From IMG/VR virus record IMGVR_UViG_3300020152_000010, positions 1 through 42,853 of that record: DNA of 42,853 bases; one strand, 5' to 3'. The notes beneath the pieces were generated by a model. The model did no database searches. It saw nothing but the letters and a program-made list of their open reading frames with translations, and had not been told where the DNA came from. The stretch is from a virus. Position numbers and translations under genes: made by a program. This document shows, piece by piece, positions 1 through 42,853 of the stretch; position 1 is the stretch's first letter; each line of letters begins with the position of its first letter.

Positions 1-125
1 TCCCGACGTTCAATAAGCCTGCTGAAACTGTTGCCCGGGCAATCGGATTCCGCAAGGAAGGCATCTCAAAAAACGAGCTGCGGTATAACGGCAGACCGAC
101 CAGCATCCTGAATTTAGCTTTATTA
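1..125. repeat. Terminal direct repeat, left copy (circular map overlap)
   Basis: These 125 bases are identical to 42729-42853, the last 125 bases of the window. The repeat lies inside a coding sequence that reads continuously if the ends are joined. The simplest reading is an assembler overlap on a circular or circularly permuted molecule of about 42,728 bp, not a biological terminal repeat. Confidence 0.95.
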
Positions 126-12195: not shown

Positions 12196-12456
12196 ATGCT
12201 TAAACACATCGAACGCCGTTTATACGGTGATGCGGTAGCGGCTGCTATTGCTATTTTAAAAACTGCTGACAAACTCCTGAAAGAGTATGACGGAGACTTC
12301 TCTGAAGGCCTTGGATCATTCTGCGCTATGCTCTGGCCTGACCTTCCTCCAGCTCTCAAGGGAGAAGACAGCAAGGTAAAAGAAGCTGAGTTCCGGCATA
12401 TTTCAGAGACGGCCCTATTGCTTGTTTATAGACTGAAACAGTGGTTAGAGAAATGA
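12196..12456 (+). CDS. Unrecognised 86-aa helical protein before the endolysin
   Basis: ATG 12196 follows AGGAGA at 12187-12192. The protein is helical with an Ala-rich stretch (DAVAAAIAILKTADKLL) too short and mixed to be a sure membrane span. The stop overlaps the start of the M15 peptidase (ATGA), so the two are translated together. It may be a lysis helper, but this rests only on position. Confidence 0.65.
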   Translation: MLKHIERRLYGDAVAAAIAILKTADKLLKEYDGDFSEGLGSFCAMLWPDLPPALKGEDSKVKEAEFRHISETALLLVYRLKQWLEK

Positions 12457-12833
12457 AACTAACCAAGAATTTCAACCTGGAAGAATTCTTCTGTTCTCCT
12501 GGGAGCCGGCAGTATTTTGATTCCCTGACGCCGGCTGCTCAAGATCGAATTATTCGCAATATCCGAAAGCTGGCTGAATCCCTGCAAGTCTACCGGGATT
12601 GGGCAGGTGTTCCATTCACCGTTACCTCTGGCCTGCGTTCTCCAGACAGGAACGCAGCGGTGGGAGGCGCTGGCAGCTCAACCCATATGGATGGGAAAGG
12701 CTGCGACTTCGTGGTGGGCAAGGAACACAGAGCCAAGCTACACCGGAAGATGAGCGCTGAATGGAATGGAGGCTATAGCTTTTATACGGATGGACATTTT
12801 CACGCTGATGTAGGAGCAAAGAGGAGATGGTAG
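12453..12833 (+). CDS. Peptidase M15-type endolysin (DD-/LD-peptidase), 126 aa
   Basis: Small zinc peptidase of the M15 family (VanX/D-Ala-D-Ala carboxypeptidase fold). The metal motif is seen: H78 in SSTHMDGKGCDF with D85, and H117 in HFHADV, matching the SxHxxGxAxD and HxH pattern. The helper residues FTVTSGLRS sit before it, as expected. It would cut the peptide stems of peptidoglycan at the end of infection. The longer frame begins at GTG 12441, but ATG 12453 overlaps the previous stop by ATGA and is the better start. No signal peptide is seen, so a holin is needed. Confidence 0.85.
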   Translation: MKLTKNFNLEEFFCSPGSRQYFDSLTPAAQDRIIRNIRKLAESLQVYRDWAGVPFTVTSGLRSPDRNAAVGGAGSSTHMDGKGCDFVVGKEHRAKLHRKMSAEWNGGYSFYTDGHFHADVGAKRRW

Positions 12834-14189: not shown

Positions 14190-15734
14190 TTAGGCGCATA
14201 GAGCCTTGTGAATCGCTTGTATTGTAACGGAATGTTGCTGTAAAAACGTTCGAAGCTCATCCCACCGTGTGCCCCAGTTTTTATTTTTCGCTAATTTATA
14301 TAAATAAGCGAAGGGCTCTTTCAGCTCTACGCGGACGTTTCCGTCCTTGATAAAAAAGTTCGATACAAGGGTATTCAGCATAATCACACGATCTTCTTCC
14401 TCTGCGTCGAACCAAGCTGAATAAAACTGTTCCGGGAGTTCGAACAGGTCAGAAGCCAGTCGGTCATAGGATCGGTCGGCTTGATTCAAATTGTCCCGCC
14501 GGTTCTGGAGTCCGTCGATTTCTTGCTTGTAGTCCTGGGAGATTTCACGGAAAAGAGTATCATCCAGCTCGCCGGAGATTTTCATTTCAACCGTTTTCCG
14601 GAGATTCTGCCGGGCTTTGGCGATCATGCGGTCAATCCGCTCCGCTTCTTCCTTGTACGTCTGGGATGCGAGTTCATCACAAACCCCCATTCTGGAAATA
14701 CCCTCCGCTTTCAATTCATTAGGAATCTGAAGGGACTTTAAAGTCTCGTGCAACGCGGCATCGATCTTGGATTCATTGATATACCCTTGGGCGCATCTGT
14801 GCCGGACGTGTGCCCCGGTACTGCAACGGTAATAAGTGTAGCGTCCATTCTTCTTTAATTCCCCGGAGAGGAGTCCCCCGCATTCCTCGCAATGGAGGAT
14901 GCCCCGGTAAAGGAATTGTCTGCGCTGATAGGATAGCGGCTTAGCATCCTTTTTGAATGCCTTTTGCACGGACACCCAAAGGTAAGGCTCGATGATGGGC
15001 TCGTGGATGCCTGGGAAAATCTGATCCTTATACTCAACGTCTCCGACATAGACACGGCGCTTCAGGAGTCTTTCCAGATTGGATACAGGAATCTTTGGCT
15101 GATAGGATCGGAACACGTATCCGCGCTTCTTTAATTGTTCTGAACATTCCTTGAGCGATACGGCACCGCTTCCGTACAATTCGAATGCAGCCCGCACAAA
15201 GCGGGACTCCTCCGGGTCTATCTGAAGTTTTCCCTTCACCATCTCATATCCATATGGAGCGGAACAAAACCAACCGCCCTCTTTCGCCTTCTGAGCCATC
15301 CCCTTCCGAGTCTCCTCGGCCAGCTTATCGATGTAATGCTTTGCAAAGAGGACCATCTGGTAGAAAAAATACATTTCTGTACTGTTAGAGCCCTTGTGCA
15401 GCGTTTGTCCTTCCTTCACCAGATGGATAGATACCCCGTGCTCTTGGATCAATCGATCGATCAGTACCACGTCGTGAAAGTTTCGGGTGAGTCGGTCTGT
15501 TTTCTCTACTAGTAGAATCTTCGGACCCTTCTTTTTCTCCAGGATCCGCACCATCTCCCCAAAGGCTTCACGCCCTTGCTTTTTTGCGCTCTCAGAAGTT
15601 ACGAACTCTTGAACAATCTTTAATTTTTGCTTCCTGGCGTATTCCTGCATCAAGCTTGCCTGGGCTGGAAGTGAATACCCCTCTTCTTCCTGCTCCTTGC
15701 TCGATACCCTAGCGTATAAAATACACTCTTCCAT
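14190..15734 (-). CDS. int: Large serine recombinase (phage integrase), 514 aa
   Basis: The N-terminal resolvase domain starts YARVSSKEQ with catalytic Ser11 and contains the conserved DRLTRN segment. The recombinase domain (PYGY near residue 172) follows, then a zinc ribbon (CEECGG and RCSTG at residues about 283-312, with a further Cys) and a long C-terminal coiled coil. The 514-residue length is normal for large serine integrases such as phiC31 or TP901-1. It catalyses attP x attB recombination without host factors. Its ATG overlaps the stop of the small gene before it (TAATG), so the two are coupled. This shows the phage is temperate. Confidence 0.92.
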   Translation of the reverse strand: MEECILYARVSSKEQEEEGYSLPAQASLMQEYARKQKLKIVQEFVTSESAKKQGREAFGEMVRILEKKKGPKILLVEKTDRLTRNFHDVVLIDRLIQEHGVSIHLVKEGQTLHKGSNSTEMYFFYQMVLFAKHYIDKLAEETRKGMAQKAKEGGWFCSAPYGYEMVKGKLQIDPEESRFVRAAFELYGSGAVSLKECSEQLKKRGYVFRSYQPKIPVSNLERLLKRRVYVGDVEYKDQIFPGIHEPIIEPYLWVSVQKAFKKDAKPLSYQRRQFLYRGILHCEECGGLLSGELKKNGRYTYYRCSTGAHVRHRCAQGYINESKIDAALHETLKSLQIPNELKAEGISRMGVCDELASQTYKEEAERIDRMIAKARQNLRKTVEMKISGELDDTLFREISQDYKQEIDGLQNRRDNLNQADRSYDRLASDLFELPEQFYSAWFDAEEEDRVIMLNTLVSNFFIKDGNVRVELKEPFAYLYKLAKNKNWGTRWDELRTFLQQHSVTIQAIHKALCA

Positions 15735-16613: not shown

Positions 16614-16632
16614 TTTGTAAAACCGAAGATTT
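16614..16632 (+). repeat. 19-bp direct repeat, copy 1
   Basis: TTTGTAAAACCGAAGATTT occurs exactly at 16614-16632 and 17696-17714. The core CGAAGATTT appears again at 17834-17842. The copies bracket the DUF551-like gene, the nuclease and the membrane peptide. They may be regulator sites or the edges of an inserted cassette. Confidence 0.85.
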
Positions 16633-16675: not shown

Positions 16676-16915
16676 ATGGAAGAATTTATTTGGCAACCAA
16701 TGGACACCGCGCCCAAGAATGGCGATAGAGTTCTGCTTTTCTGTCAGCTTGAACCTGATATAGAAAACCTGGCCCAAAAACCCATAGAGCGGTTTGTAGT
16801 TGGCTATTACCAGGATGGAACGTGGAAGCAGGCTGTTAATGGCAATGAATACAGGCAATATTATCTAACTTCAGACCTTAAACCTATGCTATGGACGGAT
16901 ATCCCCCCGTTATGA
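16676..16915 (+). CDS. DUF551-like protein, 79 aa
   Basis: The N-terminus W-QPMDTAPKNGDRVLLF fits the DUF551 pattern (W-P-I-TAPKDGT-vLL) found in many phage and prophage proteins of unknown function. It has two relatives in this genome, at 27068 and in the C-terminal part of the protein at 30890. The ATG has GGAGG six bases upstream, and a TATAAT at 16661-16666 may be a -10 element, though no good -35 is visible. The stop overlaps the next ATG (ATGA). Confidence 0.75.
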   Translation: MEEFIWQPMDTAPKNGDRVLLFCQLEPDIENLAQKPIERFVVGYYQDGTWKQAVNGNEYRQYYLTSDLKPMLWTDIPPL

Positions 16916-17361
16916 GAATCGTCCTTTTGATCCTTTTGCTCCTGATGGGAACAGCCCAGGCTGAGAAAGTCTGCAAGGTGTATGACGCTGACACCCTGAC
17001 GCTCTGTAATGGGGTGAAAGTCAGACTTGCCAATGTTGATGCCCCTGAGCTTCACCAACCTTACGGGAAGGGAGCCAGGGACTTTACGAGGCGCTATCTG
17101 ATAGGCAGGGATGTTTCCCTGACCTGCAAAGGGAAGAGTTTTAAAAGGCGGGTTTGTTCGGTGCAGGTGTTGACAAATAGTCAACGACTGGACTTTGGAA
17201 AAGAGCTGGTTGGTTGGGGGTGGGCCTTCTCTGAGCCAAGATACGACAAGGCAGGGAATTATCTACCTGCTGAAGCATTCGCCAGGAATCAGCGGCGAGG
17301 AGTCTGGATGCAGCACGATGGCGGGCAGCGTCCTTGGGTTTATAGAAAAAAGAAATTCTAA
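16912..17361 (+). CDS. Exported staphylococcal-nuclease-like (thermonuclease family) DNase, 149 aa
   Basis: The signal peptide MRIVLLILLLLMGTAQA has a likely cut after AQA. The mature domain has the SNase motifs: YDADTL (D25, D27), VRLANVDAPE (R38, D43, E46) and a later basic pair (KRRVC, R79/R80) in place of the usual second Arg region. SNase-type enzymes use Ca2+ to cut DNA or RNA outside the cytoplasm. ATG 16912 overlaps the previous stop by ATGA. A longer in-frame start at 16891 would add residues before the signal peptide. It would act in the periplasm or outside the cell, perhaps against incoming DNA or for nucleotide scavenging. Confidence 0.8.
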   Translation: MRIVLLILLLLMGTAQAEKVCKVYDADTLTLCNGVKVRLANVDAPELHQPYGKGARDFTRRYLIGRDVSLTCKGKSFKRRVCSVQVLTNSQRLDFGKELVGWGWAFSEPRYDKAGNYLPAEAFARNQRRGVWMQHDGGQRPWVYRKKKF

Positions 17362-17542: not shown

Positions 17543-17863
17543 CCGGGGAACCCGAGTCGTCAATCACGCCCGATTGGCGGCTCACTTTCTATAATCTACC
17601 ACGGGGGGAGAAAATACACCACACTCCAGGGTGATTTATTACTACAAGTTTAACATTTTAAAATAGCCGACCTGGGTAATTGTATTTGTATCAATTTTGT
17701 AAAACCGAAGATTTACCCCTTTCCATACGCTACTTTCTTCGTACCATGAGTTAAACCGAAAATACGGTTGTTTAAGTGAGTTGGGAATTACTACTATTGA
17801 TACTCGAATTTATTTTCGATAACATTTGTATTACGAAGATTTAAAACACGTAGGAGATTTAGG
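17543..17863. other. Gene-free AT-rich regulatory region with palindromes
   Basis: No gene is seen over 321 bases. Small palindromes with a 6-base spacer occur: AACCG-AAAATA-CGGTT (about 17754-17769) and TCGAA-TTTATT-TTCGA (about 17804-17819). The 19-bp repeat copy is at 17696-17714 and its core CGAAGATTT recurs at 17834-17842. CCGGGGAACCCG hairpins lie just after the tiny peptide. A regulatory site or a replication-related region is possible. The ribosome site at 17852-17856 begins the next gene. Confidence 0.45.
17696..17714 (+). repeat. 19-bp direct repeat, copy 2
   Basis: Exact copy of 16614-16632, 1,082 bases downstream, in the gene-free region before the 45-aa gene. Confidence 0.85.
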
Positions 17864-18001
17864 ATGGAGCGCACGGAAGCGTTGGCCGCTGCATTGGGGA
17901 TGGTGGAAAATGCAGAGGGATGGGAGCTTGATATAATTATTTATGTGGCGGAAAGGCTTTTGGAGGAGAGAGCTTCCAGAATTATCCCAGCAACTTTGTA
18001 G
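17864..18001 (+). CDS. 45-aa helical protein
   Basis: ATG 17864 follows TAGGAG at 17851-17856 with seven bases between, and the gene ends in TAG at 17999-18001. The peptide is mostly helical and acidic (ALGMVENAEGWELDIIIYVAERLL). It runs against the - strand membrane protein gene and overlaps its 3' end by 20 bases, so transcripts from the two sides meet. No family is recognised. Confidence 0.5.
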   Translation: MERTEALAAALGMVENAEGWELDIIIYVAERLLEERASRIIPATL

Positions 18002-18470
18002 TAATAACCAGCAGTATAGAGCCAATAGCTGGAATAGCAGTATTAATAATCCTTTCGAGGTGATCAGCTGTGAAGTTAAACCCGGTACTATTCGTAGGAC
18101 TCTGGACAGTGCTTTGGGTGCTGTCACAGATAGCAGTTCTTGTATTTAATGGGGATGGGTTTAAGTCTCCACTGGATGTAGCAGTAATATCAACATCCTC
18201 TGCTACTGTAACATTACTTGTCGATCGATGGTGTTGGTTTGCATTTCGGTCTAAAGCATTAGCCAAAGATTCTAAAATTGCGGATGAATAAAAAAGAAAC
18301 AGGTTGTGGATTAAGAAGAATATACCAATAGCAACAAAGAAGACCACCCAAAACTCTTTGATCCAATCAACTACGATGTTTAAGGTTTGCAAAATAATTG
18401 AAACAGAGAAAAAGACTCCCATAAATGGGAACATCATTTTTTTAAGACCAAATGCGCTTTCTTTCTTCAC
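17982..18470 (-). CDS. Membrane protein of the lysogeny operon, 162 aa
   Basis: Two hydrophobic spans lie in the N-terminal third (MGVFFSVSIILQTLNIVV and EFWVVFFVAIGIFFLIHNLF), then a polar Ser/Thr/Asn-rich region (about 75 residues) and a last span at the C-terminus (IPAIGSILLVITTKLL). GTG 18470 has AGGAG seven bases upstream, which favours it over an upstream GTG at 18512. It is the third gene of the - operon that starts with the repressor. In a lysogen it would be made continuously, fitting an exclusion or immunity role by inference. Confidence 0.7.
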   Translation of the reverse strand: MKKESAFGLKKMMFPFMGVFFSVSIILQTLNIVVDWIKEFWVVFFVAIGIFFLIHNLFLFYSSAILESLANALDRNANQHHRSTSNVTVAEDVDITATSSGDLNPSPLNTRTAICDSTQSTVQSPTNSTGFNFTADHLERIINTAIPAIGSILLVITTKLLG

Positions 18471-18502
18471 TCTCTCACTCCTCTCTACTTCTTTAACGGG
18501 GG

Positions 18503-19099
18503 TCAGTAGCACATCGTATTGATATATGTTCTACCAGGTGAAAGCCTTGAACTGCACTGAGTTGGCGCTGGGATTGTATATTGAGGTTGAGGAGAATATG
18601 AGTTCCTTCTTAGGTTGAACTCAACATATTCCTTCCCTAGCCACAGTAGACCGTTTCCAAAAAATTTAAGCAAAGCCAGCTCGGATGCAGTAGGAGCTGC
18701 AATAAGAGGACCTTTGTTTTGTTTTAGGTGATGCAAGTTTTGAGATTCAGTCTGGCCCTGTATTTCAGGTTCTAGAGGTTTATAAAGCTGAGTATTATTG
18801 CTTAACTCTGCGCTCTTCGCCTTAATTGCGGGGATCATTGACTTGGCAATCCCTGGATATATATTCAAATCAAGCAGTTGCTCTTGTGTATATCCAGCCT
18901 CTTGGACTTTTATTTTTAGCAAAGTCTCTGCAAATTTAAAAAGTTCCATATTGGTACTGAACCCAGGAACTTCCGCATCAATTGTTTTAAAAAATATGGC
19001 ATCAATTGCTTTTATTTTCTCTTGAAGTTCTGGGGAATATTGAGCCCAAGCTGTTCCAATGTTGAGCAGCAAAAGAAAAATTATTATCTTCGCTCTCAT
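18503..19099 (-). CDS. Exported protein of the lysogeny operon, 198 aa
   Basis: The N-terminus MRAKIIIFLLLLNIGTAWA is a clear Sec signal peptide with a likely cut before QYSPE. The mature part is helical with a polar middle, and the C-terminus carries Cys residues (TQCSSRL, MCY). The ATG overlaps the stop of the repressor gene (TGATG), so both are made from one transcript. An exported protein made by the prophage is a candidate for lysogenic conversion or superinfection exclusion. No family is recognised. Confidence 0.75.
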   Translation of the reverse strand: MRAKIIIFLLLLNIGTAWAQYSPELQEKIKAIDAIFFKTIDAEVPGFSTNMELFKFAETLLKIKVQEAGYTQEQLLDLNIYPGIAKSMIPAIKAKSAELSNNTQLYKPLEPEIQGQTESQNLHHLKQNKGPLIAAPTASELALLKFFGNGLLWLGKEYVEFNLRRNSYSPQPQYTIPAPTQCSSRLSPGRTYINTMCY

Positions 19100-19443
19100 C
19101 AGATCCCCTTTTTCCTCTTCTTGGCGGCTTCTAATACTATCTTCAACTCTTCCTCATTAAGTGACTGGATCAACTCAATCTTTTTATCGATAGGGAGATA
19201 CTTGGCATCTTCCACAACATCAGGGGCTTTGTCCTGCATATCCCAAGCCTTTAGAGTGGCATAATCAAGGCCTAGAGGGTCATAATTAGAAAATACATCT
19301 AGAAACTTTTTTGGGGGTGGTTTTTTCCCGTTGATTACCTTGCTAAGCTCGGCAGGATCAATCCTTAAGTCAAAGGCAACATCCTGTCTTTTTAGGCCTT
19401 TGGCCTCTATAGCTTTTCCAAGTTGCTCACCAAAATAGCTCAT
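19099..19443 (-). CDS. XRE-family repressor (CI-like), 114 aa
   Basis: HTH of the XRE/Cro-CI type lies in the N-terminal half (GEQLGKAIEAKGLKRQDV then DPAELSKVINGKK), followed by a helical region without the RecA-cleaved peptidase domain of lambda CI. The open frame begins at 19473, but ATG 19443 (MSYFGEQ) starts the folded part and places the palindrome at 19445-19463 directly before it. There is no ribosome site, and a -10 like TATAAG at 19454-19459 would give a nearly leaderless mRNA, as for lambda cI. The start is therefore an inference. It faces the early gene at 19551. Confidence 0.85.
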   Translation of the reverse strand: MSYFGEQLGKAIEAKGLKRQDVAFDLRIDPAELSKVINGKKPPPKKFLDVFSNYDPLGLDYATLKAWDMQDKAPDVVEDAKYLPIDKKIELIQSLNEEELKIVLEAAKKRKKGI

Positions 19444-19444
19444 A

Positions 19445-19463
19445 CTTGTCATTCTTATACAAT
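19445..19463. promoter_or_regulatory. Operator-like palindrome next to the repressor start (O3-like)
   Basis: Three mismatches from the 7-5-7 pattern CTTGTAT-N5-ATACAAG (here CTTGTCA-N5-ATACAAT). It overlaps the suggested -10 (TATAAG, read on -) of the repressor promoter, so binding would shut off the repressor's own gene at high level. Confidence 0.6.
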
Positions 19464-19488
19464 TTCTAGCCATTGAAAATGAAACCCC

Positions 19489-19517
19489 TTGACTTGTATC
19501 TCGAATACAAGTATTCT
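19489..19517 (+). promoter_or_regulatory. Rightward early promoter (PR-like)
   Basis: -35 TTGACT at 19489-19494 and -10 TATTCT at 19512-19517 with a 17-base spacer. Two perfect operator palindromes cover the spacer and the -10/start region. It drives the early operon from the HTH gene at 19551. Confidence 0.75.
19493..19511. promoter_or_regulatory. Perfect operator palindrome (O2-like)
   Basis: CTTGTAT-CTCGA-ATACAAG, exact 7-bp arms. It fills the spacer of the rightward promoter. Confidence 0.85.
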
Positions 19518-19534
19518 TGTATTGTTAATACAAG
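19516..19534. promoter_or_regulatory. Perfect operator palindrome (O1-like)
   Basis: CTTGTAT-TGTTA-ATACAAG, exact 7-bp arms, over the -10 and expected start of the rightward promoter. The centres of this and the previous site are 23 bases apart, near two helical turns. Confidence 0.85.
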
Positions 19535-19550
19535 AAACAGGAATTCAAGT

Positions 19551-19736
19551 ATGAAGCATCCAAAATACCTGACCATTGAAGAAGCTGCCCAGGAACTTGG
19601 CTGCCATAAGAACACCGTCAGGAACTCCATTGATAGAGGAGAGCTTCCTGGCACCATTCGGAAAGGGAGAAACGTTTTAATTCCGGCTTCCGACATAGAA
19701 AACCTCAAACAAAAACCAACAAGGAGGGCAGTATAA
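19551..19736 (+). CDS. Small HTH protein (excisionase / Cro-like), 61 aa
   Basis: A winged HTH of the MerR/excisionase type (LTIEEAAQELGCHKNTVRNS, then GELPGTIRKGRNVLIPASDIE, the usual DNA-contact wing pattern). The frame opens at 19473, but ATG 19551 with AGGA eight bases upstream is the sensible start, because the longer form would put operators inside the gene. As the first gene after the rightward promoter it could be a Cro analogue or control the lytic choice. Excisionase-type HTHs are also used as transcription factors. Confidence 0.8.
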   Translation: MKHPKYLTIEEAAQELGCHKNTVRNSIDRGELPGTIRKGRNVLIPASDIENLKQKPTRRAV

Positions 19737-21876: not shown

Positions 21877-21909
21877 ATCTCTGTTTCTGGGCGGTATCGC
21901 CCTTTCTCT

Positions 21910-21980
21910 GGCCCATTAGCTCAATGGGAGAGCGCTTTCCTTATAAGAGAGTGACCCAGGTTCGAATCCTGGATGGGCCA
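21910..21980 (+). tRNA. tRNA-Ile with anticodon UAU (reads AUA)
   Basis: All four stems pair by hand: acceptor GGCCCAT/ATGGGCC (7 of 7), D arm GCTC/GAGC with TA before it, anticodon stem CTTTC/GAGAG (one G-T) with loop CTTATAA, and T arm CCAGG/CCTGG with TTCGAAT. Reading the loop, U33 is followed by UAU. A73 is followed by AAA, so CCA is not encoded. It lies between early genes and may help decode AUA codons. No intron is seen. Confidence 0.9.
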
Positions 21981-22036
21981 AAAATTTTTACTCACTCATT
22001 ATTGTTTTTTAAATTTCAAAGAAGAGTCGAATCACA

Positions 22037-29763: not shown

Positions 29764-30135
29764 TTGGAACAGCGAATTTTCCAAAAGACCAAGCTGGAAT
29801 TGGTTGATAAAGTAAGGCGGCTAGAAGCCGAAGCCGCTGTGCTTCGTGAAGCTTTGAATGATATCGCTGGATTTGCTTCCGAAAGAGCTGGCGTGGCCTA
29901 TTATGGTGCCTTTGCGAAAATTCCTAAGTCAATGGCTATGGAACAATTCGCAAGGGTTCAAGATAAAGCAGAAAAAGCCCTCACCAACCTCCCCGACTCC
30001 GCCAAAAAGGTTATGGCTGTGATTGAGGCTGCGAAGGAGTTCGCAAAAACAGGGTACGCACCAGTCCCAGATGGAGAACTCACAAATCAAGGTAAATTAA
30101 TTCAAGCCGTACAAACCCTGGAGGGTGAAAGCTGA
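29764..30135 (+). CDS. Coiled-coil protein (TTG start), 123 aa, paralogue of 30135
   Basis: TTG 29764 has GGAGGAGGA about 7 bases upstream. Residues about 17-33 (VRRLEAEAAVLREALNDIAG) share the module EAEAA-x-LREAL-x-DI with the next protein, and 17 bases there are identical. Both also share EKAL later. Probably duplicated modules of unknown function. Confidence 0.6.
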   Translation: MEQRIFQKTKLELVDKVRRLEAEAAVLREALNDIAGFASERAGVAYYGAFAKIPKSMAMEQFARVQDKAEKALTNLPDSAKKVMAVIEAAKEFAKTGYAPVPDGELTNQGKLIQAVQTLEGES

Positions 30136-30665
30136 TGAGTGAGTTAAAAAGGTTTCCAATTCAAGTAAAAGTCGGTAGAGCCCATGGAAAAGCATACATT
30201 CCCTGGGAAATAGCCGAAGAAGCCTATGCTGTTTACAGTGGCAAATATGGAACATCACAAAGTCTAGAAAGACTTGCCGAGCGTGGCGGCTTCTCTGATG
30301 GGGAACTAGATATATTTATCCCTGGCTGGCGTGAGAGGGTAGAGCCTTTAAACGCTGCTAAATCCCGCATCCAACAACTAGAAGCCGAAGCCGCGACACT
30401 CAGGGAGGCTTTGGAGGATATCGTAGAGCAATGTAAGTCTGACTTTATCCCTTGTTCAAGATGTGGAAATGGTGAAGACCTAGAAGGTTGCTATATCCAA
30501 GACACCGCTGAAAAAGCCCTCTCCACCACCGCCGGAGCTGATGCGCTTGAAGTGCTGAGGAAGGCAAATGAATGGTTTTACTCGTGGGGGGATGAGTGCG
30601 ATTCAGAGTCAACGGCAGACCAATGGCTTCACAAAGCCGTTAAAACCTGGAAAGAGAGCAAGTAA
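30135..30665 (+). CDS. 176-aa protein with the shared coiled-coil module
   Basis: The N-terminal part is an unrelated domain (AHGKAYIPWEIAEEAYAVYS). Then IQQLEAEAATLREALEDIVE repeats the module of the previous protein, with a CSRCGNGED knuckle after it. C-terminal part helical. Mosaic make-up suggests domain shuffling. ATG is coupled to the previous stop. Confidence 0.6.
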   Translation: MSELKRFPIQVKVGRAHGKAYIPWEIAEEAYAVYSGKYGTSQSLERLAERGGFSDGELDIFIPGWRERVEPLNAAKSRIQQLEAEAATLREALEDIVEQCKSDFIPCSRCGNGEDLEGCYIQDTAEKALSTTAGADALEVLRKANEWFYSWGDECDSESTADQWLHKAVKTWKESK

Positions 30666-42392: not shown

Positions 42393-42853
42393 GACTAGAG
42401 TTCATTCCATACAATCCCAATGATTCAGAGCATTCCACCTTTCTCTATAAGTTGATGAAAGAATGCGCCCCTACTCTCCGGGATGACCGGGCCAGGGATC
42501 CTATCCTGATTGTTCAGGAGTTCAGCCGGCGTGCAAATGTTTTCCTCATTGAATACAACGGGCAGTTAAGCGGATACCTTGGGGCGCTCATCGACGTATA
42601 CGACAATGCCTATATCGAAGCAGCAGCAACCGGAAAGGCGAGACGATTCTTCCCCGCCCGGGAATCTCTCCGGATGTTCTGCCGGTATCTCTTTGCTGAT
42701 TTGAAAGTGAATAAAATCTTTGCTCAGATCCCGACGTTCAATAAGCCTGCTGAAACTGTTGCCCGGGCAATCGGATTCCGCAAGGAAGGCATCTCAAAAA
42801 ACGAGCTGCGGTATAACGGCAGACCGACCAGCATCCTGAATTTAGCTTTATTA
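42389..42853 (+). CDS. GNAT-like acetyltransferase, N-terminal and central part (GTG start; ends at window edge)
   Basis: GTG 42389 overlaps the hub stop by GTGA. The N-terminal helix (NDSEHSTFLYKLMKECAPTL), the strand VFLIEYNGQLSGYLGALID and the later motif KIFAQIPTFNKPAETVARAIGF follow the GNAT layout (strand 4, helix 3 and A/B motif). The frame runs off the window and is completed at bases 126-161, total about 166 residues. A tail-linked acetyltransferase could modify a virion or host surface part. Substrate unknown. Confidence 0.8.
   Translation, partial: MRLEFIPYNPNDSEHSTFLYKLMKECAPTLRDDRARDPILIVQEFSRRANVFLIEYNGQLSGYLGALIDVYDNAYIEAAATGKARRFFPARESLRMFCRYLFADLKVNKIFAQIPTFNKPAETVARAIGFRKEGISKNELRYNGRPTSILNLALL
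42729..42853. repeat. Terminal direct repeat, right copy
   Basis: Identical to 1-125; see left copy. Confidence 0.95.

What the first reader, a model, noticed from the sequence alone, without database searches (positions are those of the whole stretch)
17982..19443. Repressor operon carrying an exported and a membrane protein: candidate lysogen-encoded envelope system
Three - strand genes form one unit: an XRE repressor, then a 198-aa protein with a clear Sec signal peptide whose ATG overlaps the repressor stop (TGATG), then a three-span membrane protein with a GTG and AGGAG. Genes cotranscribed with a repressor are made in the lysogen. An exported plus a membrane protein with no recognised family may be a superinfection-exclusion or lysogenic-conversion pair.
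Basis: partly seen in the sequence, partly recalled or inferred. Interest (0 to 1): 0.72.

Follow-up and report, generated by a model that had tools for sequence, protein, structure and literature searches.

The report
Phage repressor operon with envelope genes
In an uncultured phage, the gene that keeps the virus dormant is followed on the same strand by two orphan genes, one for an exported protein and one for a small membrane protein, which may protect the host cell from other phages; the layout is familiar from phage lambda, but the two proteins match nothing known.

Summary
The window is a complete, circular temperate phage genome (identical 125-bp record ends). A minus-strand unit of repressor (19099-19443), exported 198-aa protein (18503-19099) and three-span 162-aa membrane protein (17982-18470) lies at the lysogeny switch, near a serine integrase; all three frames have coding signal. 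New here: two perfect 19-bp palindromes (CTTGTAT-N5-ATACAAG) 23 bp apart overlap the rightward promoter-like site, and a weaker third lies over a TATAAG box before the repressor. This resembles lambda OR followed by cI-rexA-rexB order, and supports, but does not show, lysogenic expression. The accessory proteins have no relative in four family libraries, phages, plasmids, IMG/VR or about 1,036 sampled genomes, and no fold match. They show no similarity to RexA/RexB or P22 SieA, although SieA has the same size and span number. Best guess (0.4): superinfection exclusion at DNA entry, in periplasm and inner membrane. A Rex-type pair, lysogenic conversion and unrelated cargo remain open. Conservation beside other repressors could not be tested, because no homologue was found. 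New variant of a known kind; modest interest.

The parts
19099..19443 (-). Probable lysogeny repressor, 114 aa, N-terminal helix-turn-helix, no peptidase domain matched; start codon uncertain (19443, 19452 or 19473), no good Shine-Dalgarno
18503..19099 (-). Exported protein, 198 aa, Sec signal peptide predicted to be cleaved after residue 19 (AWA|Q), predicted helical domain 21-103, low-confidence linker, helix 138-166, C-terminal tail with two Cys
   Evidence: no family (4-7)
17982..18470 (-). Membrane protein, 162 aa, two N-terminal spans (hairpin), acidic Ser/Thr-rich linker, C-terminal span; GTG start with GAGGAG
   Evidence: no family (4-7)
19493..19511 (+). Predicted operator O1, perfect CTTGTAT-N5-ATACAAG, within the TTGACT-17-TATTCT rightward promoter-like site (19489-19517)
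19516..19534 (+). Predicted operator O2, perfect CTTGTAT-N5-ATACAAG, 23 bp from O1
19445..19463 (+). Possible weak operator O3 (3 mismatches), covering TATAAG (19459-19454, minus strand) just upstream of the repressor ATG
   Evidence: inferred
19551..19736 (+). HTH_17 (excisionase/Cox-like) gene, first gene of the divergent rightward operon
   Evidence: family searches run on 19473-19655
14190..15734 (-). Large serine recombinase (integrase) of the lysogeny module

Best explanation
The three genes form a lysogeny operon of a temperate phage. The repressor binds two strong operators, which shuts the rightward early promoter, and perhaps a weak third one at its own promoter (inferred from sequence). 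While it holds the prophage silent, the same transcript makes an exported periplasmic protein and an inner-membrane protein (inferred). The most likely role is superinfection exclusion at DNA entry: the pair, or one of them, interferes in the periplasm and inner membrane with the entry apparatus of an incoming phage, as P22 SieA and TP-J34 Ltp are reported to do with unrelated proteins. Shown: gene order, coding signal, signal peptide, spans, operator-like palindromes. Inferred: cotranscription, lysogenic expression, exclusion. That the two proteins act together is a guess from adjacency.
For: Gene overlap and spacing and no minus-strand promoter-like site between the genes; two exact palindromes 23 bp apart over the divergent promoter-like site, where lambda OR operators are annotated 23 and 24 bp apart beside cI-rexA-rexB; coding signal; signal peptide above background; three spans; GC3 of the pair 0.34-0.36 against 0.48-0.65 for the core genes checked, as expected of acquired cargo; complete genome with terminase, portal/head-tail adaptor and integrase; published precedent that genes cotranscribed with a repressor can be exclusion systems (PMC6426606; PMC12894663) and that envelope-located prophage proteins block DNA injection (PMC10883804; PMC3952083).
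Against: No homologue of either protein anywhere searched, so no conserved pairing and no conserved residues; no family or fold match. The positive-inside rule puts the linker of the membrane protein in the cytoplasm and leaves only a seven-residue periplasmic loop between spans 1 and 2, so contact between the two proteins is not evident. A weak hairpin inside the membrane gene could lower its expression. Host unknown.
Confidence: 0.4

Rival explanations
1. Rex-type abortive exclusion: a sensor and a membrane channel encoded behind the repressor; the membrane protein depolarises the cell when an incoming phage is sensed.
For: Same gene order as lambda cI-rexA-rexB and CarolAnn 45-44-43, with a small multi-span membrane protein last.
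Against: RexA-type sensors are cytoplasmic and bind DNA, while this partner is exported; three spans rather than four; no Pfam match to Rex families and no meaningful BLAST similarity to lambda RexA or RexB.
Confidence: 0.15
2. Lysogenic conversion: the exported and membrane proteins change the host envelope (receptor masking, stress tolerance, signalling) for host fitness, with exclusion secondary or absent.
For: Exported product, low-GC3 cargo-like composition, and a second exported cargo gene nearby, the SNase-family nuclease.
Against: No homology to any conversion gene; nothing specific favours it.
Confidence: 0.2
3. Two independent cargo genes that merely share the repressor transcript and do not act together.
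For: Predicted topology gives little periplasmic surface on the membrane protein; no conserved pairing could be shown.
Against: Tight spacing and similar codon composition of the two genes.
Confidence: 0.15
4. The genes serve the lytic cycle (for example as holin or other lysis factor) and are read from another promoter late in infection.
For: No holin was identified among the proteins scanned; class I holins also have three spans (own knowledge).
Against: Opposite strand to the lytic genes and to the endolysin at 12441-12833, directly behind the repressor; no promoter-like site of its own.
Confidence: 0.07

Closest known systems
Lambda cI-rexA-rexB immunity operon (and CarolAnn 45-44-43, P. 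putida P1 RexAB)
   Same: Repressor first, then two genes on the same strand, the last a small multi-span membrane protein; repeated operators 23-24 bp apart at a divergent promoter
   Different: The first accessory protein is exported, not a cytoplasmic DNA-binding sensor; the membrane protein has three spans, not four; no sequence similarity
P22 SieA
   Same: 162 or 164 aa with three predicted spans, made by the prophage of a short-tailed phage (PMC10883804)
   Different: No sequence similarity, motif FxRYPxEAxxFNK absent, own promoter rather than repressor operon, span positions differ, no exported partner
TP-J34 Ltp superinfection-exclusion lipoprotein
   Same: Exported protein encoded in the lysogeny module on the repressor strand, expressed in the prophage state, blocks DNA injection (PMC3952083)
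   Different: Lipoprotein of a Gram-positive phage; here no lipobox and no match in the phage collection
K139 Glo
   Same: Described as a soluble periplasmic exclusion protein of a prophage (PMC3952083)
   Different: No match in the phage-collection search; the Glo sequence was not fetched for a direct comparison

Membership tests
Lambda-type RexAB system | RexA-like cytoplasmic DNA-binding sensor | tested here: not met
   Partner has a Sec signal peptide; no Pfam Rex match; blastp to lambda RexA E=0.07 over a short gapped stretch, unconvincing
Lambda-type RexAB system | RexB-like four-span inner-membrane protein | tested here: not met
   Three spans; no similarity to RexB
Lambda-type RexAB system | Genes directly behind the repressor on one transcript | tested here: inconclusive
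   Gene order and overlaps met; transcript not testable here
P22 SieA family | Sequence similarity and motif FxRYPxEAxxFNK | tested here: not met
   (E=7.6); motif absent from the sequence
P22 SieA family | About 162 aa with three spans | tested here: met
   PMC10883804
P22 SieA family | Blocks DNA injection by acting against ejection proteins | not testable with these tools
   needs infection assays
Ltp-type exclusion lipoproteins | Lipobox with lipidated Cys | tested here: not met
   Cleavage site AWA|Q, no Cys at +1
Sec-exported proteins | Basic n-region, hydrophobic core, A-x-A site | tested here: met
Phage repressor of the HTH/XRE class | N-terminal helix-turn-helix and palindromic operators at the divergent promoter | tested here: met
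   (weak HTH scores)

The most novel reading that the evidence does not exclude
A two-part exclusion system in which a periplasmic protein senses or intercepts an incoming phage's entry complex and an inner-membrane partner responds, both encoded behind the repressor: a Rex-like logic moved outside the cytoplasm, built from proteins with no known relatives.
Probability: 0.12. Interest if true: 0.7.

Novelty: new variant of a known kind. Interest (0 to 1): 0.33.

Why it matters
Genes cotranscribed with a phage repressor are a proven source of anti-phage systems. This pair has the envelope placement of entry-blocking systems but no known relatives, so a simple expression test could reveal a new exclusion protein. 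Until then it is a well-formed candidate in a familiar genomic niche. The operators also give a testable genetic switch for a phage with almost no close relatives in the collections searched.

Tried and rejected
Homologue searches of the exported and membrane proteins in phages, plasmids, IMG/VR, GTDB contigs (exported protein only) and sampled genomes of four phylum-level groups: nothing. One E=4.5e-4 hit at 19 bits spans the artificial junction of the joined query and has a stop inside; separate tblastn gives the membrane protein E=0.29 there, so it was dropped. The IMG/VR and GTDB-contig scans use exact short peptide patterns and reach close relatives only. Repressor relatives: none convincing. 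Operator-pair scan of IMG/VR: two hits without a recognisable repressor beside them, judged chance. Sixty-eight viral contigs with related helicases carry neither gene, though many are fragments. Terminase-based searches found one 5-kb fragment only. Foldseek of low-confidence models: no match at E<=0.001. Integrase and helicase relatives did not settle the host. A first signal-peptide rule missed the exported protein because it demanded a nine-residue core; it was loosened to eight after seeing this, and the background rate was then measured.

Full report
What the window is. The window is a whole IMG/VR virus record of 42,853 bases whose two ends are identical over 125 bases, so it is most simply a complete circular genome of about 42.7 kb. 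PHROG matches show a terminase, a portal/head-tail adaptor, a major head protein, tail and virion structural proteins, tail fibres and an endolysin. With an Erf-like annealing protein, a primase-helicase and a large serine integrase this is a temperate tailed phage; the large portal and adaptor families suggest a short tail (my reading, not tested further). Close relatives are nearly absent from the collections: one 5-kb fragment by terminase (75%) and helicase relatives at about 46% at best over the full length. The host could not be settled.

Check of the observation. The three minus-strand genes are as described. The repressor's TGA and the exported gene's ATG overlap as TGATG; the membrane gene's GTG at 18470 has GAGGAG seven bases upstream. 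Codon statistics trained on the phage's core genes give z of 5.3, 4.6 and 4.7 for the three frames against shuffles, with the other frames of the same strand lower and full of stops. Only two ORFs of at least 60 aa in the window pass a Sec signal-peptide rule, this one and the SNase-family nuclease at 16912-17361; the rate in random sequence of the same composition is 0.15% (the rule was loosened once after a stricter version missed this protein). The membrane protein has spans at 16-34, 42-60 and 144-162; an AlphaFold model without alignment (mean pLDDT 69) gives one long N-terminal helical stretch, a low-confidence linker and a C-terminal helix. The exported protein's model (mean pLDDT 57) is confident only for a helical domain at residues 21-103.

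The switch. Between the repressor and the divergent HTH_17 (excisionase-like) gene lie two perfect 19-bp palindromes, CTTGTAT-N5-ATACAAG, at 19493-19511 and 19516-19534, 23 bp apart, and a third with three mismatches at 19445-19463. There is no further site in the window. The pattern was taken from the sequence itself, and sites with up to three mismatches are expected about 1.2 times per window by chance, so the third site is uncertain. O1 lies inside a TTGACT-17-TATTCT rightward promoter-like site, which is itself no more frequent than chance. The third site covers a minus-strand TATAAG at 19459-19454 close to the repressor ATG at 19443, which lacks a good ribosome site; that would give the repressor a leaderless message (inference). 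In lambda, the operators beside cI-rexA-rexB are annotated at 23 and 24 bp spacing. So the operon sits where a lysogen-expressed transcript is expected. Lysogenic expression itself is an inference.

What the two accessory proteins are. Neither matches Pfam, PHROGs, NCBIfam or PADLOC; the few listed hits for the membrane protein are weak and below cut-off. tblastn of each against 50,697 phage records and 72,556 plasmids found nothing. Pattern-based scans of IMG/VR (both proteins) and of GTDB contigs (exported protein only) found none; these reach close relatives only. A joined query against 399, 241, 248 and 148 sampled genomes of four phylum-level groups gave one spurious hit. The exported protein has no PDB sequence match and neither model has a significant fold match. 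The GC content at third codon positions is 0.34 and 0.36 against 0.48-0.65 for the core genes measured, as for acquired cargo.

Mechanism. Published work shows that genes cotranscribed with a repressor can be exclusion systems: CarolAnn 43/44 with repressor 45 (PMC6426606) and P. putida RexAB behind a CI-like repressor (PMC12894663). Envelope proteins made by prophages block DNA entry: P22 SieA, an inner-membrane protein of 162 or 164 aa with three predicted spans (PMC10883804), and the lipoprotein Ltp in the lysogeny module of TP-J34; Glo of a Vibrio prophage is described as a soluble periplasmic exclusion protein (PMC3952083). By analogy the best guess is exclusion at DNA entry (0.4). Direct tests of membership failed: no meaningful similarity to RexB, RexA or SieA, no SieA motif, no lipobox. 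So it may work like these but is not shown to be a member of any of them. By the positive-inside rule the membrane protein's linker is cytoplasmic and its periplasmic loop short, which weakens the case for direct contact between the two. Rex-type abortive infection, lysogenic conversion, independent cargo and a lytic role remain as rivals.

Verdict. A specialist would find a repressor-linked pair of orphan genes common in kind; the exported partner is the unusual feature. Interest 0.33.

Noticed in passing
window 16912-17361 (+): SNase-family nuclease with a Sec signal peptide (Pfam SNase E=4.5e-12), a second exported cargo protein close to the lysogeny module; a periplasmic nuclease could also act on incoming phage DNA.
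   Followed up: partly
window 16614-16632 and 17696-17714 (+): Exact 19-bp repeat TTTGTAAAACCGAAGATTT (expected by chance 0.01), the first directly behind a terminator-like hairpin, with a related CGAAGATTTA at about 17834; possibly a phage-specific promoter or regulatory element for the plus-strand cargo genes.
   Followed up: partly
window 17864-18001 (+): 45-codon ORF with AGGAG upstream, convergent onto and overlapping the end of the membrane gene.
   Followed up: partly
window 21909-21981 (+): tRNA-Ile with anticodon TAT, to my knowledge uncommon in bacteria, inside the early region.
   Followed up: no
window 1-125 and 42729-42853: Identical 125-bp record ends; most simply assembly overlap of a circular genome.
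   Followed up: partly
window 17554-17583 (+): Strong stem-loop (-19.3 kcal/mol with flanks, z -5.2) at the end of the plus-strand cargo block, probable terminator.
   Followed up: partly
window 29821-29866 and 30378-30423: 46-bp direct repeat at 78% identity in neighbouring early genes, a sign of local duplication.
   Followed up: no
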